64,000 nt of DNA. Origin: Trebouxia sp. TZW2008 (lineage: Eukaryota; Chlorophyta; Trebouxiophyceae; Trebouxiales; Trebouxiaceae). Under the pieces are notes generated by a model. That model saw only the letters and a program-made list of their open reading frames with translations. It had not been told where the DNA came from and searched no databases. The position numbers and the translations under genes were made by a program. The stretch covers positions 62,001-126,000 of the forward strand of contig BDIU01000132.1 in NCBI GenBank assembly GCA_002118135.1, in the 5' to 3' direction. This document shows positions 1 to 52,330 of the stretch, piece by piece. How positions within the stretch are numbered: position 1 is the stretch's first letter; the number at the start of each line of letters is the position of its first letter.

Positions 1-3000
1 CATTATTTTCCTTTGAAGCTGTGTATCGCATAGCGTGCTGGTGGTATAAGCAGACTCTTGGTGGAGCTAGAAGGCATAAGCCGCAGCAGTCAGAACGCCA
101 ACGATGGGTGACTGACTCTGTATAGGGAAGTCTGCCAGCTTGGCTTGGACGTCCTTGTTCAGAGCATTCCACTTTTTGAGCTTGGAGGCCTCCTCCTTGT
201 GGCTGTCACGCAGGTCTACAAGTGTGCTCTCCAGCTCCACTTCCACCCCACGGATGATGCCAACCTGAGTGCAAAGCAACAGCATTCACAAGCCCTCTCA
301 ACTAGTGCATTTGCCTCAAAATTGCTACAAATATGTTGACTATCTTCAGCTTGTAGGCCTCTGCCTTGTGGCTGTCATGCAGGTCTACCGGTCTGCTCTC
401 CAGCTCCACTTCCACCCCACAAATGATGCCCACCTGTACACAGAAGAAGACCATTGGAAGCTCTCCCAGGCGTCTAAACGAACTGTCTGAACTCTGCTGC
501 AATCACGCTGAATGTCTTCACTTGACGCTCTGAGGGTGCATGTGCTAGCACAGGTGCTCTTCTTCAAGTCCTTAATGTGACCCATATTGCATCAGCACCA
601 AAAATACGAAGCACCTTGACTGTGGAGTTCTGCTGATACAGCAAGATCATTGAGATGCCAGTTATTGGCCAAGCTGCTGAGCTCTCATAAAACTGCAACA
701 GATCTTATCCTGGGCAGACCAATGCTTTACAGTGTGAACAATTTGTTAATGTCAATATTGTCTACCTGTTAGAAGAGTCAAGCATGGTTGAGCTAAACTG
801 ACTCGGCCTCGGTATGCGACCTGCCACGGCACAAGTGCGAGCATGAGTGACCCAACAGAGCACTGCCTCTCGTCTCAGGGTGCACACATGCACAGAGGCG
901 ACAGCAATGCTTTTTAGTACTGTAAGAGCACTGAACTCCTGGCCTGCTGAGCCTCTGAGCTTTGCTTACCTCTTTGCTCTTGCGCTCAAACTCGCTGCGG
1001 ATGCCAGATAGCACCTCCTCCTTCTGCTGCAGCACCTGCTTGGTCTCCTCAGCAGCTTTCAGCACTTTTAGGGCAGCCTCATCCATCACCTGCATGGCAC
1101 AGCAGTTAGTATCATTGCTTTTCTAAGCATGTTTGCGATGTTTGCAATTGAGTGAGTATTGAGTGCTGTTGGTGCAGGTGCAGGAGCTCCACAGGGATCA
1201 TACAAAACATGTCCTCTGACATCAGCTCAATGCAGAGAGCTTGCAAGGAAAACGACAAGTTCACAAATCAACCATGGAGCCTTGTTCTGGAAGTCGTTTT
1301 CCTGAGCAGGCTTGACAGAATGTTTCAAGCTTTGCCATTTTGCCTTGATTGAGACTGATAGAAGATTGCATGCATGGCAAACCCTATCTAAGATGTACCT
1401 GCTGCTCTTTCTGCTTGTCCTCCATGTCAGCGATGCCCTTGTCCAGCTCCTTTTGGGTCTTGGTGCACTCCTTGCCCAGCTTCTCTGCCTGCTTGCCTGC
1501 TGCTGCAATCTGCACCTTCCTCTTTGTCACCCCTCCTTCAGCATCTGAGATAGCCTGCAGCATCACTGCCTAGTCAGCAAGCACGCTTTGCCTGACTGGT
1601 GTGGACATTGCAAACATGTAGCTCTGAGACTTGCACTGTCTGCTTAACAGTCTTTGCCCAGCGTCTCTGCCTGCTGCAGCAATCTGCATCTTCCTCTTCG
1701 TCACCTCTTCCCTCAGAATCTGAGCTAGTCTGCAGCATCACTGACTTGTTTACAGCTATGCATCTCTGATCAAGTAGGCTTTGCAAAGAGCAAGCCTGCA
1801 ATCTGCATGGTCCAGTCTCTCAAGCCCTTTCCCTTGTGAGCTAAATGCAAGCAGAAGTTGCTTGCCACACCTTTCCAATGACTCCACTGAAGCAGAAGTT
1901 GCTTGTGACTCCTGTCAACTGAAGCAGAACTTGCTTGTGACTCCTTTCCAATGTATGCAATGAAGTCATCTGCTTGTGCTATGGCATGTTTGAGATCAGC
2001 TTGTAAAAGGCTCAAACCCACTTGCTGAAGCTCAGACACCGCCTGCTTCTGCTTCTTCATCTTGGGACCGCCTGCATTGTCGATCTGCCCCTGCAGTTTC
2101 TCTGCTTGCTGCATCAGCCCCATTGCGCTCTTCTTCAGCTTTGTCAGCTCTGCCTCGCCTGCATTGATCTCCTTCTTCAGTGCTGAAAGCCTGTCGGAGT
2201 CTTCTGATTTCACCTGCACAACGAAAAATCATCATGCATTTTGGTACCTGTGCACAAATCTCTGCCTTTGCCAGCAAGCATAGAGCACACACACAAATCC
2301 AGCTGTTCTACAGTCAGTCCTTTTCCCTGTGTTGGGATGTGTAGTCAGAGTTATAGAATCATGACATTTGGACCATGTCAAGATGGCCATATTGGATGGG
2401 TTGGCTGCATGTTGTCATGTCACAAACAAGTTGAGAAATACAGCCAGACTTATATAAGAAGCAAGCACAGAATACAGGTCACCTGAGCGGCTTGAGCAAG
2501 CTGAGAAAGCTGTTGCTGCAGGTCCGTGGCTTGCTGGCGGGCGGAGGCGGCCTCAAGCTGCAGCTTGGGAATGGCCACTTCTAGGCGCACCGTCTCCCGT
2601 CCAATGCGCTGTGCTTCAGATGCTGCTTCCTGACTTTCCCTCTTGGCCTCCTCCAACATCTGGAACATCACTATATGTTTCAAGCAAATGTGGATGATGA
2701 TGATGATGTCCTATGGGCGCATCACCTCCTGGCCAACGCGCTGTGCCTCTGCTGCTGCTTCCTGGCTTTCGCTCTTGGCCTCCTTCAACATCTGGAAGAC
2801 CGCCATATTTTTCAATCAAGTGGATACAGTAATGTACTGCTTTGAGCAGCACGACAGAAGCTGCTTCCTGGCTCTCTCTCTTATCCTCTTCAAGCATCTG
2901 TTGACTACAAATATCACAGTAGACTACTTGTGAGCGTCAAAAAGCTTGTATGTATTGAACCTCAGAGGCTGCATTGGCACAGCATACTTTGCCAGGCTCT

Positions 3001-6000
3001 CTGCAAGTGAGCGCAATCATCAAATGATCTTTTCACAGCTCAATTATCTACCATCAGATGCACTCTTGCCGCTTACCTGAGTGCTGGTGCTGAGCTGTTG
3101 CTCCGCAGCTCGCAGCTCAGCCACAGCTGTGGAGGTGTCCACAACACGCCTAGCTTCCTTGCCTAGGCACATGCGGCCACCTCTGGGCTTGCCGCCGCCA
3201 CCGCTCATTGTGCCTGACTCATTGATCATGTCACCCTGCATGTAGCAGCACAATAGACATGAACACAGAGCAGCCTTTGCTCAGATGGAAGACATGCCCA
3301 GAAGACTGAGCCATTCAAGTTGATGCTTGAAATGTGACATGTACAAAGCCTGTCAAAGTCAATAATGCTCCTATCATCAAAAGCACAGCCTGACATGACA
3401 GTGTGTGCTGACTCAGCAGTAAGTTGGCTCTTGTGCAGCTACTCATGCATTACTATTGCAAAAGTGCTTTTGTCTCGTGAGTACTGCACAAAACCAATCG
3501 CAGTGCCAGCCAGACATGCGATTGTGAATGCTGTGTTTGTCTACCTTGAGGGTCACCACTCTGCCCCATCTCTTGTCCTTGCCATAGGCAATGCGTGAGG
3601 CTTGCTCCAGGCTCTCAGCCACAACAGTGTCCCTGAGGCCAAAGTAGAAGGCAAGACGAACTTGCTCATCCTTGACACGCACCAAGTCAAACAGGCGAGG
3701 CACCCCTGCAGCCAGACCACTGATCAGGTCAGCAGGCCAGTAGAAACACGCTGAACCTCATTGTAGCAAACACCCAGGAATAGAACAACAGAGCTGTGTG
3801 GTCAGCAGGGATTCAGTAAGTCTCTTGACCTCCGTGCTGGGTTGCAAACACATTGTACTCAGTTGATTGACTGAAGGTCCAGTGGTTTATACACTTTTTG
3901 CTTGCCTGCTTACTTGGACTGCCTGTCATCTCAATTGACTGCTGCGCCACTCACGCTTCAGCATGCTCTTGCACAATTTTGCCTTTGACAACATTGCCAA
4001 TACATTCTAGTGCAAGAAACATCCCGGGCTGCCTCTTTAGACAGGGGCTCCCATTATGACGCGTACTGGCGTAGACTTCTCTTTTCATTTCATTTCTTTT
4101 CTTGCTTTCTTTCTAAGAAACATGCTACCAAAATGATCCAGGCAAGTCAAGACCTCGCCTTCAGGGGGCGCCGGCTTTTCCTGTAGAGCCCTCGCAAGGC
4201 GCTGTTGTTTGTCCAGGATCAGAAAAGTGCACACTCCCAGGTTCTTCAGCCTGAGCAGCTCTACACAGCGCTGGGCCGTGGTGGTGTTGTCTACCACTGT
4301 GTAGTCTAGGGCTGCACAGCTGGTAGACACAGCTACATCATACTTCGCATCAATGGCCCCAAGGTCTCCTGCAGCCAATCACAGCCGTAGGTTTGCTAGG
4401 AAACCAAAATGGTACTGCATATATGCATTGTCTGTGGTTGAAGCTGCATATCTTCAGCCTGAGCAGCTCCTCACAGTGCTGGGCCGTGGTGGTGATGTCC
4501 ACTGCTGTGTAGTCCAGCGCTGCACAACTGGTAGGCACAGCTACATCATACTTGGCATCAATGGCCCCAGGTGTCCTGCAGGCAATCATAAATGTATGTT
4601 TGCAAGGAAACAAAACAGGTATAGCACATGCGTCTTGTCTGCAGTTCCAGCTGCTATTCTTCAGCCTGAGCAGCTTTGGGCAGTGTTGGTGTTGTCCACC
4701 AATGTGTAGTCCAGCGTTACACAGCTGGTAGATCAATGGCCCCCAGGTCCCCTGCAGCCAATCACAATTTTATCATGTTTATGGGAAGGTGAAACAGGTA
4801 CAGCATATGCTTGCCCTTGGGGTAAGCTCTGTATTCCCTGAGTGTTGAGTCTCACAGGTTGCAGTAACACACACCAAAAGCAGGCATGCAAAGTGTGCTT
4901 CATGTACAAAAGCTGGCCTGGCAAGACAGGATTGGCACTACACACAACGCCGGCATGTGCAGCAATTGCTAAACACATTTTTGGGCCAAAATTAGGTCTA
5001 TCAGCAATCACGGGCTCATGCTGCTTACCAAGGCTGCCCAGGGTTTTCAGGAATCTCCACACTGACTTTGGCAGCCATGGGGGCCGTGTAAACACTCATT
5101 CCACCAGAGAGGGCAACTTGAACAGGCATGCACAATGGCCCCAAGGAGTTTTATCAAGGACTCAGCAGTCACAAACTGATGCTGCTGACCCAGCCTGCCA
5201 AGGCCTTCAGCTACCTTTGCACTGGCTTTGGCAGCCATGAGGGCCGTGATGACACTCATTGCGTTAGGTAAACTCCAATGAAACAACAAGACAGCACACT
5301 GGCTTTGACCAGGGTCAAATCAAGGTTGTCAACAAGCATAGGCTGATGCTGTTTACTCAGCCTGCCCAGGATTCCAGAAATCTGGCTGCCAAAGCTATCA
5401 GGGCATTGATGACAGCATTACGCCAGGTAAGTTCAACCTAAACAGGCATGCGGGATGGTTTGGCAGAAACAGACTGATGGTGCTTAATTCAGCCTGCCTA
5501 CAAACCCAGGAATGCCCCCACTGGCTTTGGCAGCCATGAGGGCCATGATGACCACCATTGTGCCAGTGATATTTGAAATGGACAGAAATGTAGTCACAGG
5601 CTGAAGTTGCTTACCTAACCTGCCCAGGATTCCAGGAATCTCTCCCTTGGCTTTTGCAGCCATAAGGGCCTTGATTATATCTCCCTGAGAGGTCTGGGCT
5701 TGTGAGTCAGCCCGCCGCTGCTGCACTGTGCCCCTCACTTCCTGCAGCGACCTGTTCAGCTTCTCCACTTTTGCCGCTGCAGCTGCCTCCCGCTGCTGCG
5801 CTGTCCCTACCTCTTCCCTGCAGATGACGAAGAGAAGGGGTTGAAAGAGAGAGGTTCAGTACATCTCTCGGTGGACTCGCAGTGTCTTAGGGTTCTGCAA
5901 TACATACAAGTGCGGAAGTTGATCAACATTGGTGTCAGACAAACCATGACTCTGTCGGTTTTTCAGAGCAGGTCTGCAAAAGGTTGTGCATGTAGTATTA

Positions 6001-9000
6001 AAGCAGCTGCACAAGATGTCCTAGTTCCGATCATGCTGGCGACAACCACAAGACAGCCATGTGACTGATGGAGACACTGCCTGGCAAAAATGGGAAAGTG
6101 CATGATAAGCATTGGAACAACGTCCATGCTGCTGGCAAGCACAAGCCAGGTGTGTGCTTGTTGGTGCAGTGAGTTAGGAGAGCAGTTCAGCAGGGCGCAC
6201 CGGTGCTGCTGTAGCTGGTGCTCCATTTGCAAGACTTCCTGATCCTTGCTGGCGGCACTGCTTGAGGCTTCCCTTGCCCCTTCTTCAGCATCCTGCAATA
6301 CAGCAGATTGTTTGCTGCTGACACTCAAAGTGAATTTGGCATTAGTGAAAGCAAGCAGGTTATGCCCTCGAAGAAAATATAGGCAGGTGCACCTTTAGCC
6401 GTTGCTTGGCCTCTTCATGGGACTTGTGCAGCATGTCCTGCTCAGCAGTGGCCACTGCTAGCTTGGACTGGACTTGACTAATCTGCTGCTCCCAGGGCGC
6501 CAGCTGGCGCCGCACCTCCTGTAGTGCTTGTGTGTGCTCTTCTACTTCACCTCTGGCTGCCTCCTGCAGCTGCTGCAGCAGCTGCTCTTGAGTCACCAGC
6601 TGCTGCTCCAGCTGCTGGGCCTGATCAGTTAGGCCTTGGATGCCGGATTGGAACTGCTCAGCTTCTGTTGTGCCAGCCTGCAAGCCATGCATATGCACTG
6701 GATTGGCAAAAAGCCAGAGTCTGGCAACAAGATGAAATGAGGTGCTCAGGGCACTGCTGTGTATTGCTACATCTGCTCAGGTTGATTTGTGCCAGCCTGC
6801 AAGGCGCTAACGGCCGTTATGACACCTAATAGTTTAGATTTTTCTTTGGTTTTCCTGATTGAATGATTGTTGTGGTGACACACCTGCATTTTGGCTGTAT
6901 CCTTGGTCAGCTTGTCTTGCAGCTTCTTGAGCTTGGCCTTAAGATGCTTGACATCCTCCCGGTACTTGATGTCCTTGCGCTCAAACTCCTTGAACTCCTC
7001 ATTGGCGCGCTCCAGCTCCTTGGCCACACTGCCATGGTCAGCACTCATGTCCTTGAACCTAAACACAATACATAAGCATTCTGTTCCGTACTGTATCTGG
7101 GCAATGCTGTAGCGGCTTTGCTACGCATGTGAAGGCTTTCGCCACACGCCTGATATGTACCCTCCTGTTTGCAAGCAGGTGGCATTTTGATGCAGCATGC
7201 AGGCAAGTGCTGTTGTGCATTGAGTCAGTGGCATTGTTGCTGACTTTGCAGACTGATGACATCATGAGCCAAGACATCAAACCTGCTGGTTTACGTGGCA
7301 TAACTCACGCGCAGTTCAGCACTCAATTGCCCCTTCCAAGCGCAGACTGCTCCGGCCACTAGCCCAGACTGATGCGCTCATGCCTGACTGCTTCCTAGAG
7401 TTGAGCTGCCAAGCAGGAATGAAGAATGCCTGATGCATGGTAATGCATGCATTCTGGAGTGCAAACAGGATGCAAACACCTTTTCTCTGCTTCCTTGAGA
7501 TCCTTGTTGTAGGTCTTGAATTTGTCCTGCTCATGCTTCAGCTTGGCTTCTAGCTGAGTCACGTTGCTCTCGATCTTGGTCAGGTTGCGCTGCACCACAA
7601 GACGTGTTTAGGTGGCATGCTGTGACAAGCACAATGTCTCCCATAAGCAGCAGAACAGAAGCTTGCAAGGATCTGCATTGCTTCTGGAAGCTGCTTCAGT
7701 TGGTGCTCAAAGGTCAAGTGATTGAGACATGTGTCATGGCAACAAGCTCAAGTCGGTTACTGTGCTTTCTGTCTTGTGCGGTAGAGAAAAGGAACATAGC
7801 AGCCTGTTTGATTCAAGCACCAGGACCAACTTTGGCAGTGACTGCCAGTTATGATCATACCATCCACACAAAAGCTTGACTTCATGCTCAGCAGACATGC
7901 TTGTGACAGGCAGTGCTTGCATACACAATTGCATCATGGCCAAACAAGCCTTGACCCACCAAAGCTCTTGCTCAAAGCCACAGAAGCAGAGCTAGGGGCT
8001 CTGCACACGCGGGCTTCAGTGCAGTGATTGTGTGCTGTGTGCTGTACCTGGCCATCATGCATGAAGCGCTGGAAGATCTTGCTCTGGGCACCCAGCCTCT
8101 CAGCATCTTTGAACAGGTATGCCTCAGCAGCCAGCTTCTCCCCTTCAAGGCCCTCACGCTCTTTCTCTGCTATCTTCACACGGTTGACCTGACCCTGACG
8201 AGTCTCATTCAGGGTCTCCAGCCTGCAGGGCACAGCCTAGCTGTTGAATCATTCGCCTGCAGCCCAAATTCGGTCTTGATGTCATTTTGGAGGTGCATGT
8301 AAGCAATGCTTCTAGAACCCTTTCGTGCTGTCTTGACATGGTTGACCTGACCCTATCAAGCCTTGTTCAGGATTTCAAGCCTGCAGGACATGCCAAAGCC
8401 GTAGAAACTGTTTGCCTGCAGCTCAATTTTGGTCCTTTACTTGTTTCAAGTTGTGCATGTGCATGTGAACATCACTCCCAGAATCTCCTGCTCTGTCTAT
8501 GCTATCTTTTCAAGGTTGACTCCCTAGCAGAGAGAGAGAGAGTAATTCTACATGCTTTAGCCAGCCAACAAGGCTGATCACATGTGCCACACCGTGGCAA
8601 TGACTATTTGTCTGCACGTCTCATTCAGGGTTTCAAGCGTACAGATAATGTATGGATTATGCTCATACTCATGGCATGCAGGTGTATGTATGCACTACAT
8701 GCCAGGCAAAGCTGTGACTTGTAGCCCCATGCTTGACAGCATGCTTGCAATGTTTGTTGTTTTGCATCCGTGATTTGTGATTAGAGCGTGAACAATGGCG
8801 GCAGCTGCAAAGTATTGCTGAGATTTGACTGCTTTACTGAACCGCTTGGATCGGTGACGTCAATGATATGCAAGGTTTATACTGCGTGTCTGCACAAGCT
8901 TCTGCCGCTGCATCATGACTATGTAGCAACAGCCAGTCTAAGCTATCAGGCAACACTTATAGATTCATTTGTGCAGCTGTGTGCATCCAATCAGCAGCTG

Positions 9001-10207: not shown

Positions 10208-11389
10208 ACTGGTGCGCCGGGCAACGCCCAGCACGCTTGTCCTTCAGGTTCAACTCCAGTGGCAGTCAAAGATCAAGATCACACAAAGGTCACGCGGTCA
10301 GTAGCAGCTTCGTGCGTGAGCGCTTCACGCAAGCGGCTCGGCAGGCCTGCACTGACTCGATGTTTGCCTGCGCTCAGCAATTCAGACCTGAAACGTTTGC
10401 GCTGATCGGCAACGTCCATGCCTTGCGCTCAAATTGGCCACTGCAACAGGCTCTGCAAGGGAATCTCAAGTAAGCTTTGTGCAAAAATTGCAGCAAAATG
10501 CTGTAGCTATAGCATGCTGTAAAACTGACCATCAGCAGCTATATCACAGAACATATAGTATATCAGCCTGACAGCTCCACGATACAAGCAAGTGCTGTCG
10601 CCGTTACCCACAGTCATTGCTGCATGCCTACACAGATGCATGCATGACACAGGTGTTCAGTGGAAGCACAGTGACTGATCACTTGTCATTGCAACAGTTT
10701 TCTTGGCGATGTTGCACACCTTGGGCAATACTGACAGCATGTCAACAGCCTCAGAGATTGTGATGTCAATGTCTACTGCACAGACACTGAGACTTGATGC
10801 AGCATGGATAAGTCTTTACATTGAAGCACCTCACAATGAAACTGATTACTAATAAGCAGCACCCTGGTGCTCACTATAGCTGTTGAAACAAGGAGATGCA
10901 CCTCAATCAAGCAATTTCACTGTTGTTCTTGAAAAGATGAATGATCACTAAGCATATGGTACAACAAGCATATGTACAGATGCTGGAAGTCACAATTCAC
11001 AGGGTCTATGGGGTAAGCTCAGAATACTTGCTGAGTCAAACTGTACAACAGGGGAATTCATTCTCCGCTAACGCACAGTAGCAGATGAGGGTTCATTTTG
11101 GATGTCATTGCTCATCACAACGCCAAAAGTGGCATGGACACCAAAGACAACATGTGTCAACACAGTGTAAACAAACTACTTTTGTATGACCAAATGCTGC
11201 TGAAGAGTTGCAGATGCCTTCTGCCTGTGAGGCACAAATCCCAGTCCCACATAAAGTCACACACGCCCCGTTCCTTGGTGTGAATACACTGTCTCGTTCA
11301 CACAGAAATGACATCATGTCACAAAGGACTGCCCCTGCAAGTGGGGTTTTGTTGGCATCTTGCAAACTTGGTCACTGTCTTTCCAGCTG
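10208..11389. other. Intergenic: SMC4 promoter side and AFC 3' region
   Basis: No coding region seen. The stretch must hold the SMC4 5' region (next to 10207) and the 3' untranslated region of the AFC kinase (below 11390). Short ORFs here show no family resemblance. No clear TATA box or repeat was noticed. Confidence 0.5.
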
Positions 11390-18819: not shown

Positions 18820-18843
18820 ATTAGTCATATGGCAGCCCCCCTT

Positions 18844-40997: not shown

Positions 40998-43900
40998 ATG
41001 CAGCAACAGCTTGTCGAAGCCATACACACCCTCTATCATCACGCGGACCCGCAAGTCAAGAAGAAAACTAGCACTCAGCTAGAAGCATGGCAGCAGAGCG
41101 AGAGCGCTTGGTCCCTTTCAGACGCCATTCTTCACGATGCAGACAGCAACATGGAAGCACAATACTTTTGCGCCCAGACGTTGCGCACCAAGGTAACCAA
41201 TACACACACATGCTTTCATCAGATGAGGCGCAGTGCCTCCCATTCATGCCTCTGTGCACAACAGACAGACAGCAATGCAGCAGGCACCACACATAGCTTG
41301 GCTTTTCAGGTACAACGCGACTTTGAGGAGCTGCCTGCAACAGCAGCAGAAGCTCTGCGTGCTTCCCTCCTAGAGCTGCTTGTGCGCTTTGCCAGTGCTG
41401 CCGCAGCTGTCAGAACGCAGCTGTGCCTGGCTCTAGCCGCCATGGCCGCTCATGTGCCAGCACAGCAATGGGGCAAGGGTGGCATGGTGATGTGGCTGGC
41501 AGAGAACCTTGGCAGGCAACCACAGGACATCGCTTTGCCCTGCATGCTTGAGCTGCTGACTGTCATCCCAGAGGTCAGTTTACAGCTGCATGTTTGAGCA
41601 TTCCCTTATTGTTCAACCAGTGACATCAAGAGTTAGATTGCTTCTTGGATTGATGTTATTCATTGCCTAAGACTTGACAGGCCTATACAGAAGCAGCTGA
41701 GGTAAGATCATCAACCTGACCGCTGCTTGCAGTACCTCAAACCTGAGAGCTTAGTGCATCCCATGACTTGCTGCATCTGTACCCACCAGCAGCCTTTTAC
41801 TGTGATCATAATCGCTTATTCACTGGACCATATCCACTTTTTAGTTTTGCCCATTCCACTGCATGATGTCAGCAGTCGCCTCCTGCATGTTGCTCACTAT
41901 GATGCTCAAACCAACATTTGAGAGCTTGTTTTGTCTTCGGGACTGACGCGTCATCCTGATACAGGAGGTGAGCAGCTACAGGCCGGCAGTGAGGCCAGAG
42001 AGGCGTCGCCAGATGCAGCAGGAAGCTGAGGCTGCAGCGCCCAATGCCCTGCACCTCCTTGCCACCTGCCTCAACCAGAAAGGTATCCGGCGTTCAACAA
42101 GCCAGAACATTTGCCCAGTCCTGCACCTTTTGACCACTGCCCTTGAGCGGAATGGCATCCTCTGATGCGTGGCTTTGAGCCTTTCATTTGTTCTTTCCAA
42201 CAGCGTTATGCCTACCGTACGTCTTACCCAGCTGCCTCAGCCAACAAGGTAATGTGTGCACCGCACCCTGCACCTCCTTGCCAGCTGCCTTGACCAAAAA
42301 GGTGTTCTACACTTATGCATTGTGAGCTTTTGCCAACACTCTCCAACAGCATCATAGCCACAGCGGCTCCAGGTCAGCTCCTGGCTAAGACTGAGCGCTG
42401 GGGCAGGGCTGGTTGGGCCTGCCCTGGCCAACAACCCCCTCACAGCAAGCAGCCATCAAGGGCCTCACATCCACTGAAACATTTGTTGACGATTCAGACG
42501 ATGTCTGTGAGCTGGTCCTGTCCAGCTGCCTTCTATCCTCTTTCACAGCAATTGTTTTGTGTCCGCAGCCGGCCAGGCAACAGGTCCAGTATTGCATGCC
42601 TTTGCATCTTGGCTGCGGCTGAGCGCTGGGGCAGGGCTAGATGGGCCTGCCCTGGCCAATCACCCCCTCACAAAAGCAGCCATTGAGGGTCTGCAGTCCA
42701 CTGACACGTTTGAAGACGCCTCAGACGCTGTTTGTGAACTGGTGCTGTGCACCTCATCCAAAGGGCAACCAGAGCCTCAGATGATGCCTCTAGTGCAGTT
42801 ACTGGTCCCCGCGGTGAGTGCTGGTTCACAGTTCTGCACTGGCATTTGAGCTGCGTGTTGCATCTTCCCTGCTGTAGACCATCCTTTCCTGACATCCTTC
42901 ATACTTGGCATGATCAAGACAGAGAAGTTTCTTGGTTGCTATTGTTACGATGGTTGCATTGTCGTTGTCAGATAATTACTACTGTCATAAATCATCATCG
43001 GTACCTCTAGTTTTGTCAAAACAGCTCATGCTTGTCTTCAACACTTGAATTTGGCATCATTAAAGTCATGACAACCTGTATGTCAATAAGTTTACATTGT
43101 TGCTCTGTTTATCATCACTGTTGTTGCAAACTCAAAAGTCATTCCGCAGGTGTTGGCTCTGCGGCCAAGCAGGAGCAGCAGAATTCAGGCTCCACTGCTG
43201 TCATGGCATAGATTCTTGTCTTGATTGCTTGTTCTGCACAGGTAATGGCGCTGCGACCAAGGTTCAGGCTGGCAGCTCAGCAGGCCCAGCAGGAGCAGCA
43301 GAACCCAGGCTCCACTGCTTACACGGCAGATGATGTGGAGGCTGTGAAGGGCATGGCGCGCCTGTTTGCTGAGCTGGGCGAGTCCTACACCGCCCTCATT
43401 GCCACAGGTCAGCCCTGCCCTGCCCTGCCCTGCCTTGCCACAGACAGCCCTGCCCTGCCCTGCTGTACCCGGTCCCAAGGCTACAAGTCAGTTCAATTTT
43501 GGCTGTTGAGTTGTGAGTGTGTGTATGCAGCATCTCCAGACTCCATGCAGCCAGTAGAAGCCCTGCTGGATGTGGTGGCCTACCCCCACCACAGCATCAG
43601 CGCCATCAGCTTCAATTTCTGGCACCGCCTCATGCGTCACCTCATCACTGGCTTCTCAGACTCCCATCAACAACAGCAGAACCAGAATCAGCAGCAGACA
43701 GGGCCCCCAAATGCACATGCAAGCGTGAGCTCCTACCTTGCTGCTCGTCTGCCTAAGTGTGTGCTTGTTTGTAAGCACTGCCTGACTGGCTGAATGATTT
43801 CTGCTGTGTCTGGCTTGTTATCGATCTGTCTGTCTGCCTGCCTGCATGCCTGCATGCCTGCCTGCCTGCATGTCTGCCTGCCTGCCTGCCTGTCTGATAG

Positions 43901-46900
43901 CCTGCCAGCCTGCCTGCGTGTCAGCCTGCCTGCCTGTCTGATAGCCTGCCTGCATGTCAGCCTTCTGTCTGTATGACTATGTGATATAGCAACAGCCCAC
44001 AGCATGCGCTTGGGAGCTTGGCAATGCAGCGTGACCAGGTATGGAAAGCTTCTGCAAACTGCAGGAGCAGCAGCGGCGGCTGGAGGCTTTCAAGCCAGCC
44101 TACCAGCGCCTGGTGAGTGTTGTGGTGAGCAGTGTGCAGTATCCATCCAACTACCAGGAGCTGCACAGGGATGAGATGCAGGACTTCCGCCATGACAGAT
44201 ATGCCTTCACAGAGACTCTTGAAGATGCTGCTGGTCAGTTCCCAGCTTTTTGCTGCAGGCATCACTGTCATGCCTGACGCTTGCATTCAATTGTTTACAA
44301 ATACCTGCTTGTCTGTCTGTGCAGATGCGAGTTGCAGCGCAGCCTGCAGCTGCTGTGAAATGTCATTTCAGCAGAGCTTGCTAGATTAGCCTTGCATCAT
44401 GTCCATGGACTTGTTGTTTCCTGTCTGGCTGTGCAGATATTATAGGCTGGCAACCTATGCTGCAGCTGGTGAAGCATGTTGTCTAAGCAGCTACTGCTAG
44501 GTCTTGCACTAGCCTTGCATGTTGGCAGCAAAGTCAGTGGCTCCTGTCTGTCTATGCAGATGTGATAGGCTGGCAGCCGACGCTGCAGCTGCTGCTGGCG
44601 CCCCTGCAGCAGTTGTCCACCACTTTTGACTGGCGGGTAGCCGAAGCCTGCCTCTACTGTGTCAGGTCAGCTTGTACCAATGTATGTGACTATCTTGTGG
44701 TACCAACCACTTAATTTTGCGCATGCTGACAGTTGACAGTCTGCTCCTGCTTGGATACATTGCATGGTCGAGCAGGTGCCGGTACTTGCTAGTCTATTGC
44801 AGCCTTTGCATGTATTGCTCACAGCCTCACAAGCAGAAACAATGATAACCCCTCAAAGCACAAAGAGGGGCACTGCAGCAGATGCAGCTCTCCTCATAGC
44901 AGAAGCCTTGAGCAAACCTTCAACCAGAAAGCTTGAACAATCCAGCAGCAGATGCACTGCTCAAAGCGTGCGTTGCACACCGTAGCAATCTGGACGACTG
45001 CTGTGTATACGTCAATCAACAGGAGAAACATTGTGGCAGCAGACGCGCTGCTCATGTCCCTGTCCAGCAGCCCAAGCAACACGCCCAACAATACGCGTGT
45101 TACACCTAAGCATACAAGTAGCAACCTAGACAACATGCTGTATGCAGGTCCGTCAACAGGAGAGACATCCCAGCAGCAGATGCGCTACTGATGTCTCTGT
45201 TCAGCAGCTTGCCCAGCATGCCCAGCAATGATGACCCTACCACTTTGCGCTGTACAGTGGCCATGCTGATTGGCGCATACGCTGGCTGGCTAGCTGCCAC
45301 TGTGAGAGTGGATCAGCGAGCCAAAGACCTAGTGTCTCAGCTACTTCAACTGCTCATGACAGGTGCAATGCTTGCTGAATTGTATGCTGTGTGCTTTTGC
45401 TTGCTTGCCAAACAAGTCAGCCTGGAGACTTAATAAGGTAACCATGCTGATTGGCGCTTACGGCGGCTGTTTAGCTGCTACTGTGAGAGTAAATGAGTGA
45501 GCCAGAGACCTAGTGTCCCAACTTCTTCAGCTGCTCATGGCAAATGCGATGCTCATTGACTTTTGTGCTGTTTGCTTGCTTGTGGAAGAATCTGGCAAGT
45601 CAACACAGTGGCCTCGCTCATTGGTGCATACGCTGGCTAGCAGCCACTGTGATAATGTTCAGATCAGCGAGTCACAGACCTGATGTCTCAACATCTTCAG
45701 CTGCTCATGGCAGGTGAGCTGCTTGCTGAGCAGTAGTGTATGTGTTGTTTGCTTGCTGAGCCATTCATGTCAAGTGTCCTGTGCCAATGCCAGCCCGTCA
45801 TCTTGTCAAATGATACAGCATGCCAAAACTAGATGTGGCTATTTGTTGGGCATGTCCCCAAATTCTGTTTGAGTACGTCTGACAGTGTGTTGCATGCCCT
45901 CAGGTCTTGAGCACTCAGAGAGCACTACAGCAGCAGCAACAGCCATCAGGAATGTTTGCAGCAGCTGCGGCACCTTCCTGGCAGATTCCCACCTGGACGT
46001 CCTGCTGCAGCTATATCAGAAGGTGCAGGGGCAGGGGGCAGCTGCCCCAGCAGGTGCACAGAAGCTGCAGGAGCAAGATGTTCAGTCAGTGCGTTTGGCC
46101 ACTCGAGCATTCCACCGCCACTCACCGTTTCACTGAAAGCACAATGAATTTGTGTGAATAAACAGCACTAAATCGACCATGGATGCATAAGTCTAACCAG
46201 GCAGCTTTTATTGCAAGCCTTGACTGTCAGCTCTTATTCATATGTTGAGCTGTACTGTCATCTGATCAGCTGCTGCTGATCCTGACAGAGGTGCAATGTT
46301 GCATTTGGGTTGACTCATTCCCATAGCAGCAGTGCCTGCAAAAGCTGCAACACAAGCATTTGTGTTATATGGCAGATCATGGAGGCTGTTGCTCATGTGG
46401 TGTCTACTGTTCCAGGAGACAATCAGGGCAGTGCCACAAGGGCCCTTCTGGACCCAGTCCTTGGCGCTCTGCAGCAGTGCCTGTAACAATCAGAGCATAA
46501 GATATGTGTTCTCGTGGTGCAGATCATGGAGGCTGTTGCACACGTGGTGTACACTGTACTAGGAGACATCCAAGCCAGTGCCACAAGAGCCATGCTGGAC
46601 CTAGTACCTAGCGCTTTGCAGCAGTGCCTGCAATAATCAGAACATGTCATGTCCGTTCTCATGACGCAGATCTTGGAGGCTGTTGATCGTTTTGTATCTA
46701 CTGCATGAGTGGACAGTCATATCACTGCCACAAGGCAATAGTAAACATGCAGCTGATGTCTCTACAGCAGTGCTTGCAAAAGTCACAACTCAAGATCTGA
46801 CTCTATATTGCAGATTGTGGAGGCTGTTACGCGTGTGGTCTCTATTGTACCAGATGACAACCAAGCGAATGACACAAGAGCCATGCTGGACCCAGTGCCT

Positions 46901-49900
46901 AGTGCTTTGCAGCAGTGCCTGCAACAACCAGAATACGAGATGTGTGCGGTCATACTGCAGATCATGGAGGCTGTTGCACGTGTGGTGTCTGCTGTGCCAG
47001 GAGACAATCAGGCCGTCGCCACAAGGACCCTTCTGCACCGACCTTTTAATGCTCTGCAGCAGTGCCTGTAATAATCAGAACATGAGACGATTGTGTTGAT
47101 GATGCAGATCATGGAGGCTGTTGCACATGTGGTGTCCACTGTACCAGGAGACAATCAGGCCAGTGCCACAAGGGCCCTTCTGGACCCAGTTCTTAGTGCT
47201 CTGCAGCAGTGCCTGCAACAGCCCTCTCAGCAAAAGCTTCAACCGCAGACTGAACTTGTAGCAGCGTGTGTAGACAGGCTTGGGGTTGTCTTCAAGTAAG
47301 TGTTGTTGCTGCTGGTGACCTTCATTTGTGTGCCATTGGAGACATTACTTTGCAGTCAGGCTCACTGTCAACTTCACCAAATATTTGATGGTCACTGATC
47401 TGATTTGTGGTCGATGCACATCTGCTTAGACTTGCAAGACATTTACGGCAGACTGTGACATTGTGATGTTCAGCATCTCTGCAAGCTTTAGCATGTTTTG
47501 GAGTCCAATATAGGGGCTTTTCAGAAGTATTTGAGAGGCGCTGTTGTGGCTTTTCATATGCATTGATTTATATATCTGCCTGCAATGATACACATTCTGA
47601 TTGGCAGACACTTGTGTGCAAATTGAAGATAGTACTTTAAAAGCGCATGCATTGTGGTCTGTTGCAGTAGTGTGGTCTTTTGCAGTATCTGCTAAATCTG
47701 TTGAACTGTTCACTTGACAGCAGCAGCAATAGCTGCATAAGCTCTAACACAAATGCATGTCTTGGACACACAGCACAGCAACTTTCAGAGTCACACCAAA
47801 ACCAGACTGCTGTTGCTACAGGCACACTTGAAACCCATCTCTCACAGCTTCCAACTTGGCGAGCAGCTGGCAGTGTTGACCACTGCGCTCTGTTACACAG
47901 CAGCAACAGCCACATCTCTGCCACAACATGATACATGACATCTGGAAGAGGGCCATAGTGATTGACAGTGTCATGCTAACAATAGCCTGCTCATGATGTA
48001 GGCACATGGGGAACTCATCCCCCACAGCTGCCACCTGGCAAACATCTGGACGCTGTTCATCAGTGCCCTGTCCCATTATAGCTGCAGCAGCCTCATGTCT
48101 GCAATGACATGAAACACAATGCATGACCGCAACATGCATTTCATCCAAACATCGCTTTTGCTGCAGGTACACAGGCAATCAACCTCTCACAGCTTCCAAC
48201 CTGGCCAACAGCTGGCAAGTATTGACCATGGTTCTCTCCCAGTACAGCAGCAACAGCCACATCTCTGCGATCACATGTAACATGAGAGCCGACAGCAAGA
48301 TGCACTGTCGTTTGTATGTACACATTAGTCTGCCTTCACTGCAGGTACACAGGAAACCCATCTCTCACAGCTTCCAACCTGGCCAACAGCTGGCCAGTGT
48401 TGACCACTGTGCTCTCTCAGCACAGCAGCAACAGCCGCGTAGTAGAAAAGACTGGCCACGCCATCAAGCAGGCTTTGCAAGTGGCAGGAACGAAGTCAGC
48501 TGGTTTGATGCAGCAAGTCATACAGACTGTGGCCCATCAGTTCAGCATATCTGGGCACCCATGCATGCTGTACATTGCCAGCGAGCTGCTGAAGACGTAC
48601 GGACAGGACGCACAGTACCAAGCAGCACTAGGTGGATATCTGCTGCATTCTGCTTGTGGCTGTCAAGTCTTCTGCATGCATGCTGCACATTGCCAGCGAG
48701 CTGCTGAAGACGTATGGACAAGATGCACAGTATCAAGCAGCGCTAGGTGAGAATCTGCTGCACTCTACTTGTGGCGTTTGAAGCATTTGCCTGAGGGATC
48801 TGATGACTAGGTGCAGAAGTTTGCTGATTCGTGCTACTGTGCGCATATACACCATGCAACATGGCTCAGCGCATGTTTAGCTTTGCATCTGTACATGCAC
48901 ATGCACTGCCCACAACACTGGTGAGTGAGAGTGTATCAGGTTGTAATTGTTTCCAGGCTGGTCTGTCTGCCTGCCCGCCTGCTCGCCTGCCTGCCTGCCT
49001 GTCTGTCTGTTTGTCTGCCTGCTTGTCTGCCTGCTTGTCTGCCTGCTTGCCTCGTCATCTGTGTCCTATTTTGTCTGTGCCAGTAGCAACTGTCAGCCTT
49101 TGGCCGCAAGCAGACATCCTTGATAGCACCCCTTAACTAGCTGCATTGCTACTTGTCTGTCTATGCTTCTGTCTCCTCATTCGTTTGTCTGTGCATGTGT
49201 GCAGGTCAGCTGTTTGCGGCCCTGGTGAATCAAGCCCTTTTGGGTCTTCAGCAGCTATCAGCCTTTGACCGCGACCCAGACATGGCTGATGACACCTTCC
49301 TGCTCATACACAGCGCATCCGCTATCGTTACCTGTGCGTTGATCTGACATTTGTTCAAGTTGGCCTGATGTGTTTGTCTGTGTATGTGTGCAGGTCAGCT
49401 GTTTGCAGCCCTGGTGGGGCAAGCCCTTCAGGGCCTTCAGCAGCTGTCAGCCTTTGACCGCAACCCAGATATGGCTGACGACACCTTCCTGCTTATACAC
49501 CGTGCAATTCGCTACAGCCCCAGCGTTGTTTTCAATGCTCAAATGCTGCCCATCATTGTTGATGCAGCCATGACTGGGCTCCTGGTACAACACGGGTATG
49601 TTATGCGCTGGACGTGGCCTGCATCAAGTTTTGCTGTGCTTCTGATCTTGCATCTGCTTGTTGTGTTACGCACTCCGGTTTTGATACAGCCATGAATGGG
49701 CTCCTTGTACAGCATGCAGATGCAATGCACCGACTGTGACTTTGTTGGCTTGCATCTATCTGCTTGCACACTTCATATGCTTGCTTTACTGATGGCCTAG
49801 ATTGTCACATCCTTGTGCTCCAACCTGCTTGGGTCCACCAAGGATGTAGTGTCCCAAATTAAGCACACGACAACCCCTGGTACAGCATTGATACGTGGTG

Positions 49901-52330
49901 CTCTGATTGTGGCTTGTTTTGGGGTCATGTACTTGCTGGTTGATGACTTGTCACAGACTGGACCTTGCTTTGTGACTGCACTGTGCTTGCTGTTCTGCTG
50001 TGCTCTCGTGCTCTCTGCTGGCTTCTTCCACCTGCTTGCTCTGTCGATGACCAGTTTGTCAAGCTGGTTTGTTCTCACCTGATAGCCTTTGTTCCTGCTT
50101 GTTCTCATTCAGGGATTAATTTGACAAATGTAAGCATGACAGAGCTCTTGTTGCAGCATGAGCACATGATGCCCTGACTGTGGCATGTTTGTCTCTCATT
50201 CTGCTTATTGACTTCACTGCATGGTTTTTGGTATTTGATGAATATTTGTGTACAGCAAATCTTGCAGCAAGACTGTGGTGCGCTTGGAGTCCTGCTGTGC
50301 TTCTGTGCTTTACCTACACTACAGCAGGTGAGGGCGCAGTAGTACAGCAGGGCTACAGTGTGCACTAGCCTTGAGGCACTTTTTGCTCTGGCAAACAATT
50401 TGTCGACTGGATAAGTAGGTCAATACTTGTGTCATTGAGGAGCCAGTTGCCAAAAATATGTAGTGCTACATGTCAGGACTTGGCAGGTGCGCCGAGATAT
50501 CAAGGATGCTAATTGAGTAAGCGTCCTGCTGGGTCCTGCTGTTGCAGAGATGCCTATTGCTCTGTTCTATCAGTGCTGCGTAAACAGGTGAGCTGAGCAG
50601 GCCAGACTGGGAGGCTGACTGTACACAGCAGCAGCAACAGCAGCTGCGCTCGGTCATGCTGCAGCATGAGTGCTCAAGAGAGAAGCATCCAGGCATCAAT
50701 ATCGTCCAAGTGCAATCGTTGATCAAACACACAGGGCCTTGCTGTTGCAGGGATGCCTGCCGGTCAATCCTGTCAGTGCTAAGGAATCTGCATGACCTGA
50801 GCGGGCCAGACCGGGAGGCTGACTACACACAGCAGCAGAAGCAGCAGCTGCGCTCAGTCATGCTGCAGCGGGACCCTCTGCTTGTGCGCATCCTGTTTGG
50901 CGGCCTGCTTGGAGCCTTGCCAAAGTCCAGGGTGGATGACATTGCAGCCGTCTTCTATGACATGATACACGTGAGACTACTTGCTTTGTGTCTGTTTACA
51001 ATCTGCTTTCTGTCTGCAAGATAACATTGCCACTAGCGTTTTTGACATGATATATGTGACCCTGTGCTAGCGCGCATCCTGTTTGGCGGCCTCCTTGGCG
51101 CTCTACCCAAACCCAGGGTGCATGACATTACAGCTGTCTTCTATCACATGGTACATGTGAAAATCTGTTGCTTGTGCTTTGTGCTGTGACAGTCCATGAT
51201 TGACTGCTTCATTTTGCAAGTTGAACTTGTTCGTCTTGTATCAATGTCTTGGTACGAAACTGTGCTAGAGACCTGTTTGGCCATAGCACTCCCCTCTTCA
51301 GTGGTTTTATTTTCGTTATATTGGTCTTGGTCTTCCATTCTTGTGTGTTGTTGCCAAAATAAGCCCTGAGATCAGGTGTCATTGTGCAAGAAGTACCTGT
51401 GGCCACGCTCTGCATCTGAACGCATTTGGATTCCGCTGCAAAGGAGTACCAGGGGAAGGCTTAACCCTGGCTGGAGGCAGCCCTGGCAGCTGACTACTGA
51501 TCTGACGACTGATTTGGTCTGAAGCCCCTCTCAACCTACTTTTGGTCTAAGCCATACGTGACTCTGCAAATGTATAAGGCAGAGGATCACCCTGGCTGGC
51601 CGGAGGCTGCTCTAAAAGAAATGAGGGGACTAGAAGCCATACTCGGCTTGTCCATGGCTTAGTTGTATGAGTGGGTGTGCAGGAGTACAAGGGGGAAGCA
51701 TACCCATGGCTAGAGGCAGCCCTAGGAGCCATTCCTGAACAGGCCACCACTACTGCTGACAAGCAGAGCGTTATGAAGGCCGCCCAGAGCTTAGCTGCTG
51801 GTGTGGACAACAGATGGTAAGCATTGTCTTTGCTATTGTGAAGAGCAAGCGGGTGACGTACATTCAATCAATTTATCTGCTGTGCACAGATGTTAGTGCA
51901 CCCTGCATTGTGGATGGTGGCTGCTCGATTCACTCTCAATTACATCTTAAAAACGAGGACAACTCAACTTTAGTACTTTCTCTGTGTTTTGAGGTGTGGC
52001 CGTTGACCCTGTCGGAAGTCAACAACGATCAGCTGATCTCACTGGCTGCAGCTTTGTTACCAAGCATAGTTTGCAATAAAGTTTGACTGCTGGTGCAAAC
52101 AAAAGTCAGAGTTGGCATAGCAACAGATGAAATGGTGGCATCATATCTGCAATTCCTGTTGTTTTGCACTGTAATTTGACAGGCTGCCAAGGGAGAAGAA
52201 CTCATGCAGGGATCTGGAAAGCGCTCTAGATGATTTGAGTGAGGTGTGCCGGCGCAACAAACACAGCATGGAAGCTGCTGTCCGTTCGCTGCTGCCTCAT
52301 GAGCTATACCTGGCTGCCATGCCCAACTAA
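40998..52330 (+). CDS. TNPO3: Transportin-3 / MOS14 importin-beta family receptor
   Basis: Nuclear import receptor for SR splicing factors (TNPO3 in animals, MOS14 in plants). Sixteen exons: 40998-41192, 41310-41573, 41965-42082, 42569-42813, 43242-43407, 43531-43724, 44065-44233, 44560-44665, 45148-45362, 45904-46088, 47108-47295, 48345-48631, 49394-49595, 50751-50970, 51683-51816, 52183-52330. They sum to 1011 residues without a frame break; animal TNPO3 has about 920. Family landmarks in order: MEAQYFCAQTLRTKVQRDFE (importin N-terminal region), LELLTVIPEEV, VLHAFASWLRL, SISAISFNFWHRL, ATAIRNVCSSCGTFLADSHL, ALQQCLQQP, CMLYIASELLKTYG, MADDTFLLIHRAIRYSP, VRILFGGLLGALPKSRVDDI and a short C-terminal helix ending AAMPN. 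All expected HEAT-repeat regions appear present. At least ten exons carry dead tandem copies, which inflate the gene to 11.3 kb. Identity is secure. Confidence 0.95.
42100..42310 (+). repeat. Decayed copies of TNPO3 exon 3 end
   Basis: CTGCACCTCCTTGCCACCTG of exon 3 recurs near 42121 (CTGCACCTTTTGACCACTGC) and 42269 (CTGCACCTCCTTGCCAGCTG), each with the AAGGTRT donor area altered or out of frame. Both follow the functional exon. Confidence 0.8.
42360..42535 (+). repeat. Decayed copy of TNPO3 exon 4
   Basis: GAGCGCTGGGGCAGGGCTGG through CCACTGAAACATTTGTTGAC mirrors exon 4 (42569-42813) at about 200 bp offset. Early frameshift; the first part (LHAFASWL) is missing. The functional copy is the second. 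Confidence 0.88.
43143..43235 (+). repeat. Decayed copy of TNPO3 exon 5 start
   Basis: GTGTTGGCTCTGCGGCCAAG and GGAGCAGCAGAATTCAGGCT correspond to the functional exon's GTAATGGCGCTGCGACCAAG and GGAGCAGCAGAACCCAGGCT, with an internal deletion. Confidence 0.85.
43820..43965. repeat. CTGC/CTGT tetranucleotide array
   Basis: About 145 bp of CTGCCTGC/CTGTCTG with ATG and GATAG interruptions, in TNPO3 intron 6. It generates spurious Cys/Leu-rich ORFs on both strands. Confidence 0.9.
44315..44480 (+). repeat. Two decayed copies of TNPO3 exon 8 start
   Basis: The exon 8 start (44560, GATGTGATAGGCTGGCAGCC) is mirrored near 44323 (GCAGATGCGAGTTGCAGCGC) and better near 44436 (GCAGATATTATAGGCTGGCA). 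The same TCTGTCTGTGCAG pyrimidine tract precedes each. The 3'-most copy is functional. Confidence 0.85.
44840..45120 (+). repeat. Two decayed copies of TNPO3 exon 9 start
   Basis: Copies near 44855-44985 and 45009-45115 repeat the start of exon 9 (VNRRDIPAADALLMSLFSSL); the second reads INRRNIVAADALLMSLSSSP, still open for about 30 codons, then diverges. Confidence 0.85.
45430..45715 (+). repeat. Two decayed copies of TNPO3 exon 9 end
   Basis: Downstream of exon 9 the segment GCTGATTGGCGCATACGCTG through CAGCTGCTCATGRCAGGTG recurs at about 45445-45545 and 45605-45716. Both carry in-frame stops (for example GTAAATGAGTGAG). Exon 9 therefore sits in the middle of its own five-unit array. Confidence 0.88.
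46376..47068 (+). repeat. Five extra copies of TNPO3 exon 11, 147-bp period
   Basis: Copies begin (just after a CAG acceptor) at 46376, 46523, 46670, 46814 and 46961; the functional exon begins at 47108. Steps are 147, 147, 144, 147 and 147 bp. Each unit has about 110 bp of exon (IMEAVAHVVSTVPGDNQ... ALQQCL) and about 37 bp of intron. Copies 1, 4 and 5 remain largely open in the exon frame; copies 2 and 3 have more damage. Copy 1 looks closer to the functional copy than copies 3-5 do. Confidence 0.93.
47810..48275 (+). repeat. Three decayed copies of TNPO3 exon 12 start
   Basis: The exon 12 start (48345, TACACAGGAAACCCATCTCT) is repeated near 47818, 47998 and 48167, at about 170-180 bp steps, each through AGCAGCAACAGCC (SQHSSNS region). 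Stops or frameshifts occur in each. The 3'-most copy is functional. Confidence 0.9.
48675..48752 (+). repeat. Copy of TNPO3 exon 12 end
   Basis: ATTGCCAGCGAGCTGCTGAA through GCAGCGCTAGGTGAG repeats the exon 12 end (48573-48636) about 109 bp downstream, with a donor at least as good as the real one (TAGGTGAG versus TAGGTGGA). Confidence 0.88.
48958..49052. repeat. CTGC/CTGT/CTTG tetranucleotide array
   Basis: Second CTGCCTGC-type array in TNPO3, intron 12, like that at 43820-43965. Confidence 0.9.
49204..49330 (+). repeat. Decayed copy of TNPO3 exon 13
   Basis: GQLFAALVNQALLGLQQLSA here versus GQLFAALVGQALQGLQQLSA at 49394; then MADDTFLLIHSAS, after which a short deletion puts it out of frame. 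Offset about 190 bp. Short echoes of the exon 13 tail also occur near 49685 and 50130. Confidence 0.92.
50540..50695 (+). repeat. Decayed copy of TNPO3 exon 14, 5' side
   Basis: GAGATGCCTATTGCTCTGTT...GGGAGGCTGACTGTACACAG...GTCATGCTGCAGCATGAGTG parallels exon 14 at about 200 bp offset, with stops and a shifted frame. Confidence 0.85.
51062..51160 (+). repeat. Decayed copy of TNPO3 exon 14, 3' side
   Basis: CGCATCCTGTTTGGCGGCCT and GTGCATGACATTACAGCTGT repeat the end of exon 14, just downstream of it. Confidence 0.88.
51443..51612 (+). repeat. Two decayed copies of TNPO3 exon 15 start
   Basis: Exon 15 (51683, GAGTACAAGGGGGAAGCATA) is preceded by GAGTACCAGGGGAAGGCTTA (51445) and TGTATAAGGCAGAGGATCAC (51570), both continuing to CCCTGGCTGGAGG-type sequence, then degenerating. 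The last copy is functional. Confidence 0.85.

What the first reader, a model, noticed from the sequence alone, without database searches (positions are those of the whole stretch)
1..52330. Window-wide tandem duplication and decay of single exons
In at least five unrelated genes (SMC4, AFC kinase, CHUP1-like, LRR-hydrolase, TNPO3), plus weakly SEN2, individual exons with adjoining intron occur as 2-6 tandem copies. Only one keeps frame, full length and both splice sites. About 25 such arrays are visible. Copies are diverged (roughly 7-30% by eye), so they are not assembly errors, and they often keep the TGCAG acceptor. This points to a persistent, genome-wide process that duplicates 50-250 bp segments within genes and lengthens introns. 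I know of no description of such a habit on this scale in green algae. The functional exon is the 3'-most copy in about a dozen arrays and the 5'-most in about four, a bias worth testing.
Basis: seen in the sequence. Interest (0 to 1): 0.9.

Follow-up and report, generated by a model that had tools for sequence, protein, structure and literature searches.

The report
Old wave of partial exon duplications
Genes of this Trebouxia-like green alga carry many decayed, partial copies of their own exons, apparently left by short local duplications that were more frequent in the past than recently; nearly half of the exons checked have one nearby.

Summary
The arrays are real. In the window plus 28 pieces of the same genome (344 kb), local same-strand self-matches form 148 arrays on 14.4% of bases; one shuffle per piece gave none. 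The alga is Trebouxia-like. With exons fixed by homologues, 20 of 45 exons in three genes have 50 nearby intronic matches at 48 places. The reading changes in three ways. (1) The copies are not decayed whole exons: 33 of 36 upstream matches carry only the exon's 5' part, 13 of 14 downstream ones only its 3' part, none is whole. That is the geometry of a tandem duplication with one breakpoint in the exon and one in the intron; the single intact exon and its position follow. (2) Copies drift freely (codon-position divergence 0.106, 0.108, 0.205; frameshifts in 12 and stops in 9 of 22), so they are not alternative exons. (3) Persistence is not supported: 7 simple arrays below 10% divergence against 44 at 10-20% suggest a past wave. 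The 3'-most lean is 18 to 8 (p = 0.08). Density looks exceptional; mechanism is inferred, and the intron halves of the repeats are often unrecognisable.

The parts
91..430 (-). SMC4 exon 19 (functional about 91-261) with an upstream copy of its 5' part at 345-430
   Evidence: 12% diverged; exon edges good to a few bases
1399..1724 (-). SMC4 exon 17 (1399-1551) with upstream 5'-part copy 1648-1724
2483..2900 (-). SMC4 exon 15 (2483-2659) with upstream 5'-part copies 2716-2791 and 2855-2900
4157..4782 (-). SMC4 exon 12 (hinge exon, 4157-4369) with two upstream 5'-part copies near 4451-4576 and 4657-4752, period about 208; here the intron part is repeated too
5034..5813 (-). SMC4 exon 11 (5613-5813) with downstream copies of its 3' part at 5493-5549, 5361-5383, 5188-5250, 5034-5088
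8048..8637 (-). SMC4 exon 6 (8048-8221) with upstream 5'-part copy 8326-8379 and two shorter matches (8490-8520, 8618-8637)
12139..12344 (-). two-copy array in the kinase gene, shared block starting near a TGCAG acceptor, 92% identical
   Evidence: frame read by eye
14066..15164 (-). two longer arrays in the kinase gene (14066-14481, period 215; 14714-15164, period 234)
20337..20769 (-). four-copy array of an exon start, functional copy 3'-most by reading frame (read by eye)
28128..28769 (+). LRR gene exon (28397-28594) with upstream 5'-part copies (28141-28211, 28254-28341) and a downstream 3'-part copy (28675-28763)
28853..29423 (+). LRR gene exon (28993-29133) with upstream 5'-part copy 28898-28959 and downstream 3'-part copies 29243-29308 (98.5% identical) and 29351-29416
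30660..30920 (+). LRR gene exon (30807-30920) with upstream copy 30662-30735
31220..31820 (+). LRR gene exon (31678-31820) with upstream 5'-part copies 31220-31253, 31321-31386, 31430-31452
42266..42816 (+). downstream 3'-part copy 42266-42303 of TNPO3 exon 3 (41965-42084), and exon 4 (42571-42816) with upstream copy 42379-42527
43156..43406 (+). TNPO3 exon 5 (43242-43406) with upstream copy 43156-43208
44433..44675 (+). TNPO3 exon 8 (44556-44675) with upstream copy 44433-44471
45016..45709 (+). TNPO3 exon 9 (45146-45358): upstream copy of its 5' part (45016-45092) and two downstream copies of its 3' part (45442-45539, 45605-45709)
46326..47296 (+). TNPO3 exon 11 (47108-47296) with five upstream 5'-part copies, period about 146, and two 20-23 bp fragments of more
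47820..48748 (+). TNPO3 exon 12 (48343-48633): three upstream copies of its first 94 bases and one downstream copy of its last 74
49204..49714 (+). TNPO3 exon 13 (49393-49593): upstream 5'-part copy 49204-49324, short downstream 3'-part copy 49681-49714
50546..51155 (+). TNPO3 exon 14 (50749-50970): upstream 5'-part copy 50546-50665, downstream 3'-part copy 51058-51155
51447..51817 (+). TNPO3 exon 15 (51686-51817) with upstream copy 51447-51490

Best explanation
Shown: this genome carries very many short, local, same-strand duplications (74 of 80 simple ones 60-240 bp apart). In the genes checked, the visible ones span one exon boundary. A tandem duplication of a segment that starts in the upstream intron and ends inside the exon leaves the whole exon intact in the last copy and a 5' stub with an acceptor upstream; one that starts inside the exon and ends in the downstream intron leaves the whole exon first and a 3' stub with a donor behind it. 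The stubs then drift without coding constraint. Inferred: such events persist because the protein is unchanged as long as the stub, which has only one splice site, is skipped, whereas duplications inside an exon or of a whole exon change the mRNA. Inferred: the initiating lesion is ordinary break repair (for example fill-in of staggered double-strand-break ends followed by end joining), with later unequal exchange making the 3-6 copy arrays. The divergence peak says that the birth rate was higher in the past than recently: a wave, not a steady habit.
For: Direct orientation, locality, none in shuffles. Geometry: 33/36 upstream matches carry only the 5' part, 13/14 downstream matches only the 3' part, 0 whole; the 4 exceptions are 20-25 bp fragments. 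TNPO3 exons 9, 12 and 14 show both kinds, each on its own side. Codon-position divergence 0.106/0.108/0.205 over 22 copies; third-position share 0.52 with one copy per exon side (95% CI 0.44-0.59), away from 1/3 (p about 2e-7) and from 0.75, the value that I took for two constrained copies (p about 1e-11): one free and one constrained copy. Frameshifts in 12/22, in-frame stops in 9/22. In three multi-copy arrays copy-to-copy divergence is 0.57-1.0 of the sum of the two copy-to-exon divergences, so stubs drift largely on their own. Units match nothing else in the 344 kb searched in 142/148 arrays, so no mobile element is seen. Mismatches in 48 gapped simple arrays of 50 bp or more show 3-base periodicity without any gene model (0.543 against 0.470 +- 0.011). 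Age: 7 simple arrays below 10%, 44 at 10-20% (p about 1e-7); over all 339 pairs 24 have 90% identity or more and 149 have 80-90%. Break repair as a source of small tandem duplications: PMC8355091 (abstract and introduction read).
Against: If the duplications were exactly tandem, the intron part of the unit should be repeated as well. It is clear in the multi-copy SMC4 exon 12 and TNPO3 exon 11 arrays (spacer divergence 0.26-0.39), but in 48 two-copy arrays with a gap of 30 bp or more the gap resembles the predicted partner in only 12 (p <= 0.025 on one of two sides; about 2.4 expected by my arithmetic), and an earlier anchored test found 3 of 48. Faster intron drift (about 1.5-fold), constraint on the functional exon and selection of the best-looking blocks explain part of this, perhaps not all. 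Random placement predicts 56% intron-only duplications, but 37 of 38 pairs in SMC4 and TNPO3 are exon-derived, directly or through an overlapping pair, and a more sensitive search of the 9.3 kb of intron left gave 8 hits against 0-1 in five shuffles, 3 of the 8 in or beside (CTGC)n runs. So either visibility or a true exon preference is at work. Absence of whole-exon copies alone is not significant (P = 0.14; together with inside-exon events 0.018). Profile searches of two other families found few tandem partial exons.
Confidence: 0.7

Rival explanations
1. Steady, still-active habit: duplications arise at a constant rate and decay.
For: Young arrays exist: 7 of 80 simple ones below 10% divergence; TRF finds 10 of 56 arrays of period 40 or more at 90% match or better; one LRR-gene copy is 1.5% diverged.
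Against: Constant birth cannot give fewer young than old arrays: 7 against 44 (p about 1e-7), or 6 against 31 for matches of 60 bp or more (p about 4e-5). Collapse of 5-10% diverged copies by an assembler seems unlikely, but read data were not available.
Confidence: 0.15
2. Regular alternative or mutually exclusive exons.
For: Acceptor consensus is often kept in the stubs.
Against: No match is a whole exon (0 of 50); 12/22 copies have frameshift indels and 9/22 stops; codon-position rates fit one free copy. Relatives' proteins are of ordinary length (P0001 1243 aa; P0121 1006 aa). By eye the acceptor AG is kept in about 15 of 17 upstream copies; about 0.8 each would be expected at 10% divergence (my arithmetic), so this is no sign of selection.
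Confidence: 0.03
3. Exon-limited copying or repeated gene conversion from the functional exon into old stubs, so that exon parts look young and intron parts old.
For: Similarity often ends within a few bases of the splice site even in pairs of about 90% identity, and gaps are mostly not recognisably related.
Against: No copy spans an exon-exon junction (0 of 34 matches), so no cDNA source; stubs drift largely on their own; in SMC4 exons 6, 12, 15, 17 the intron match fraction stays mostly at 0.6-0.9 over 90 bp against a pooled null near 0.55 (not tested singly).
Confidence: 0.2
4. Mobile element or introner insertions.
For: High number genome-wide (148 arrays in 344 kb).
Against: 142 of 148 units match nothing else in the 344 kb searched; units are each gene's own sequence.
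Confidence: 0.01

Closest known systems
Small tandem duplications from double-strand-break repair (PMC8355091, abstract and introduction read; papers on rice insertions and paired nicks are recalled or seen only as citations)
   Same: Local, direct, short duplications; called there the most common short insertions in the human genome
   Different: There under 100 bp; here mostly 60-240 bp periods, 148 arrays in 344 kb and a divergence peak. Genetic requirements not testable here.
Tandem exon duplication and mutually exclusive exons (PMC9013439, results section and search passages read; Exonize, PMC12343006, passages and results text read)
   Same: Exon similarity inside the same gene, including degenerate intronic, partial and inter-boundary matches, which Exonize already classifies
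   Different: Copies here are partial and unconstrained. At 80% identity or more, intronic copies equal 32% of exonic bases in the three genes checked, against about 2% for human, 0.08% for fly and 0.06% for worm in PMC9013439; another tool, and my genes were ones flagged as rich.
Intron gain by tandem genomic duplication (recalled)
   Same: Tandem duplication inside a gene, one copy spliced out
   Different: There the copy begins at the donor of the preceding exon; here stubs lie inside existing introns, about 175-285 bp past the preceding exon in the three cases that I looked at (TNPO3 exons 8 and 11, SMC4 exon 15; coordinates).

Membership tests
Short tandem duplication | Same orientation, neighbouring copies | tested here: met
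   52 to 1 strand ratio in the window; 339 local same-strand pairs against 20 local inverted ones in 344 kb, 18 of those in one piece
Short tandem duplication | Whole unit repeated without a gap | tested here: inconclusive
   Met in multi-copy arrays; only 12 of 48 gapped two-copy arrays show gap homology, 3 of 48 in the earlier test
Short tandem duplication | Dependence on end-joining or primase fill-in | not testable with these tools
   needs genetics
Mutually exclusive exons | Each copy a complete, open exon | tested here: not met
   0 of 50 matches whole; frameshifts in 12/22, stops in 9/22
Mutually exclusive exons | Both copies under coding constraint | tested here: not met
   third-position share 0.52
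Introner or transposon | Same sequence at many loci | tested here: not met
   142 of 148 unique within 344 kb; the rest of the genome was not searched
Processed (cDNA) copies | Exon-exon junctions in copies | tested here: not met
   0 of 34 matches in SMC4 and TNPO3
Intron gain by tandem duplication | Copy adjoins the donor of the preceding exon | tested here: inconclusive
   not so in the three exons that I looked at by coordinates; the others were not checked

The most novel reading that the evidence does not exclude
A Trebouxia lineage went through a genome-wide wave of 60-240 bp duplications that preferred exon-intron boundaries (not merely more visible there), seeded a large share of its exons (20 of 45 in the three genes checked) with one-sided decoy splice sites, and then fell largely silent. 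This would be an episodic, splice-site-centred mutational process, tolerated only because the spliceosome of this alga ignores exons that lack a partner site.
Probability: 0.25. Interest if true: 0.82.

Novelty: new variant of a known kind. Interest (0 to 1): 0.62.

Why it matters
It offers a large natural set of one-sided decoy splice sites next to the real ones, with ages readable from the stubs: a direct test of exon versus intron definition in a green alga, of how introns lengthen, and of whether mutational processes come in waves. It also warns gene predictors, which may call stubs as exons.

Tried and rejected
A self-trained gene finder converged on nonsense and was dropped; exons come from homologues instead. 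Permissive banded extension of the repeats over-extended, and part fell onto the self-diagonal; neither was used for boundaries. The anchored spacer test and the intron-similarity profile (upstream side 0.57-0.70 against a null of 0.38-0.61; downstream side 0.51-0.76 against 0.35-0.66) had little power. A PDB search of one frame of the TNPO3 region found nothing, and a Pfam scan of SMC4 frames gave only weak pieces and the hinge. Searches with the families PF00118 and PF00493 show few tandem partial exons (one clear case, MCM on C249, read by me from the profile ranges), so genes differ or profile searches miss decayed stubs. Listings of nine paper searches showed me no description of such a wave in Trebouxia or other green algae; most subscription papers are not held and one search of ten was left unused. 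I considered and rejected assembly error, cDNA copies, mobile elements and alternative exons. No second eukaryotic genome could be examined, so the comparison of scale rests on PMC9013439 alone.

Full report
WHERE IT IS. The window is G000:C128:62001-126000 of a 68.5-Mb genome in 527 contigs. Its SMC4 is closest to a protein of Trebouxia sp. C0004 (79% to my rough query); its TNPO3 is closest to two unnamed proteins from source 'lgn' (which I take for Logan) on contigs of mRNA-like length, the best named one being from Myrmecia bisecta (P0121, P0122, P0123); its LRR protein is closest to two 'lgn' proteins and then to Trebouxia sp. C0009. So the host is a Trebouxia or a near relative; at 79% it is hardly strain C0004 itself (inference).

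THE OBSERVATION. blastn of the window against itself gives 52 same-strand pairs and 1 inverted one. With 28 further 10-kb pieces, cut at round positions from contigs named, 339 local pairs (under 1 kb apart, 40 bp or more) were found in 344 kb, 14.4% of bases lie in them, and one dinucleotide shuffle of each piece gave none. Merged, these are 148 arrays: 32 in the window and 116 in the 28 pieces, every piece having at least one; 30 kb of E. coli gave none. The window (14.2% covered) is ordinary for this sample (14.4% overall, median of the pieces 10.7%). Inverted local pairs number 20, of which 18 are in one piece, L006; distant same-strand pairs number 27, 26 of them in L005 and L006. Units match nothing else in the 344 kb in 142 of 148 arrays.

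WHAT THE COPIES ARE. Exons were fixed with P0001 (SMC4, 19 exons; the gene runs off the window), P0121 (TNPO3, 16 exons) and P0242 (LRR protein, 10 exons); edges of the first two were looked at with their flanks and are good to a few bases. All 45 exons were compared with their own gene: 54 intronic matches. I dropped 4 of 15-20 bp that lie more than 1.5 kb away (one of them inverted), leaving 50 matches at 48 places. They belong to 26 exon sides of 20 exons. Upstream: 33 of 36 carry only the 5' part of the exon. Downstream: 13 of 14 carry only the 3' part. The 4 exceptions are fragments of 20-25 bp. None is whole. A tandem duplication with one breakpoint in the exon and one in the intron gives exactly this: the exon that straddles the breakpoint stays intact at the far end. 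Upstream sides are 18, downstream 8 (p = 0.076), so the bias is a lean, not a result. Random placement of units of the observed sizes in SMC4 and TNPO3 predicts equal shares (17.7% and 17.5%), 3.6% whole-exon, 4.3% inside an exon and 56% intron only.

HOW THEY EVOLVE. Over 22 copies in SMC4 and TNPO3 (score 50 or more), differences fall 74, 76 and 142 at codon positions 1, 2 and 3, on 698, 701 and 692 sites. With one copy per exon side (15) the rates are 0.100, 0.094 and 0.213 and the third-position share is 0.52 (0.44-0.59), excluding both 1/3 and 0.75. This is what one unconstrained stub against one constrained exon should give. Twelve copies have frameshift indels and nine have stops in the inherited frame. 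A 3-base periodicity of mismatches is also seen without gene models in 48 gapped simple arrays of 50 bp or more, window and pieces together (0.543 against 0.470 +- 0.011), and weakly in 25 ungapped ones (0.468 against 0.437 +- 0.013).

AGE. The 80 simple two-copy arrays peak at 15-20% divergence; 7 lie below 10% and 44 at 10-20% (p about 1e-7), and for matches of 60 bp or more 6 against 31. Over all 339 pairs 24 have 90% identity or more and 149 have 80-90%. TRF on the same sequence gives 56 arrays of period 40 or more, 10 at 90% match or better and 24 at 80-90%. With constant birth the present count of arrays can only fall with age, so birth must have been higher in the past (inference). Some young copies exist, such as 29243-29308 at 98.5% identity. 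I cannot exclude collapse of the very youngest copies in the assembly; the sequence held no Ns.

WHAT DOES NOT FIT NEATLY. In 48 arrays with a gap of 30 bp or more between the similar blocks, the gap should resemble the flank of the other copy if the duplication was exactly tandem. It does so in 12 (about 2.4 expected); an anchored test gave 3. Similar blocks often stop within a few bases of a TGCAG or GT site (by eye). In three multi-copy arrays the gaps are related (0.26-0.44 divergence) and drift about 1.5 times faster than the stubs, and in SMC4 exons 6, 12, 15 and 17 the intron match fraction stays mostly at 0.6-0.9 over 90 bp against a pooled null near 0.55 (not tested singly). Constraint on the functional exon, faster intron drift and picking of the best-looking blocks explain much of the contrast; gene conversion limited to exon parts remains open. 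Likewise 37 of 38 pairs in SMC4 and TNPO3 are exon-derived, which is either a visibility effect (one side conserved) or a true preference for exon boundaries. The lean to upstream copies (18:8) has no explanation here.

SCALE. In the three genes, intronic copies at 80% identity or more amount to 2434 of 7579 exonic bases, 32%. PMC9013439 (results section read) reports about 2% for human, 0.08% for fly and 0.06% for worm with another tool, counting targets in annotated exons too. My genes were flagged as rich, so the true genome-wide figure may well be lower; the window's array density is nevertheless typical of the 28 pieces. Profile searches of two other families and of kinases showed only a few tandem partial exons, as read by me from the listed ranges.

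MECHANISM. Small direct duplications are known products of repair of breaks with staggered ends (PMC8355091, abstract and introduction read). Nothing here tests that pathway. Multi-copy arrays with related gaps suggest later unequal exchange (inference). Survival of the stubs suggests that an acceptor without a donor, or a donor without an acceptor, is usually ignored by splicing (inference).

VERDICT. Observation confirmed and shown to be genome-wide in the sample examined; interpretation partly supported. It is a known kind of mutation at an unusual density, with a simple geometric reading, and its activity appears to have been a past wave.

Noticed in passing
L006 (G000:C22:150001-160000): 18 of the 20 local inverted repeats of the whole 344 kb sit in this one 10-kb piece; probably a different repeat class.
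   Followed up: no
L005 (G000:C16:270001-280000): 17 distant same-strand pairs; blocks near 1.1-1.4 kb and 7.1-8.0 kb are up to 98% identical, a young dispersed duplication unlike the old arrays.
   Followed up: partly
window 43826-43953 and 48963-49052: Two degenerate (CTGC)n runs inside TNPO3 introns.
   Followed up: no
window about 31.8-42.3 kb and 51.2-64 kb: No self-match of 60 bits or more although coding pieces are present (LysM 61862-62410 minus, TANGO2-like 63247-63816 minus), so array density differs between neighbouring genes.
   Followed up: partly
window 46326-47220: In the five-stub TNPO3 exon 11 array the most diverged copies are in the middle (46670-46735, 46818-46929), and fragments of 20-23 bp of further stubs remain at 46326 and 46760.
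   Followed up: partly
window 29243-29308: A downstream 3'-part copy of an LRR-gene exon that is 98.5% identical to it, the youngest exon stub of any length met here.
   Followed up: no
G000:C249:165093-165825 (not fetched): An MCM gene shows two partial matches (profile 5-53 and 4-55) just upstream of the full one (4-113), the same pattern at protein level far from the window; kinase pieces on C73 and C130 look alike.
   Followed up: no
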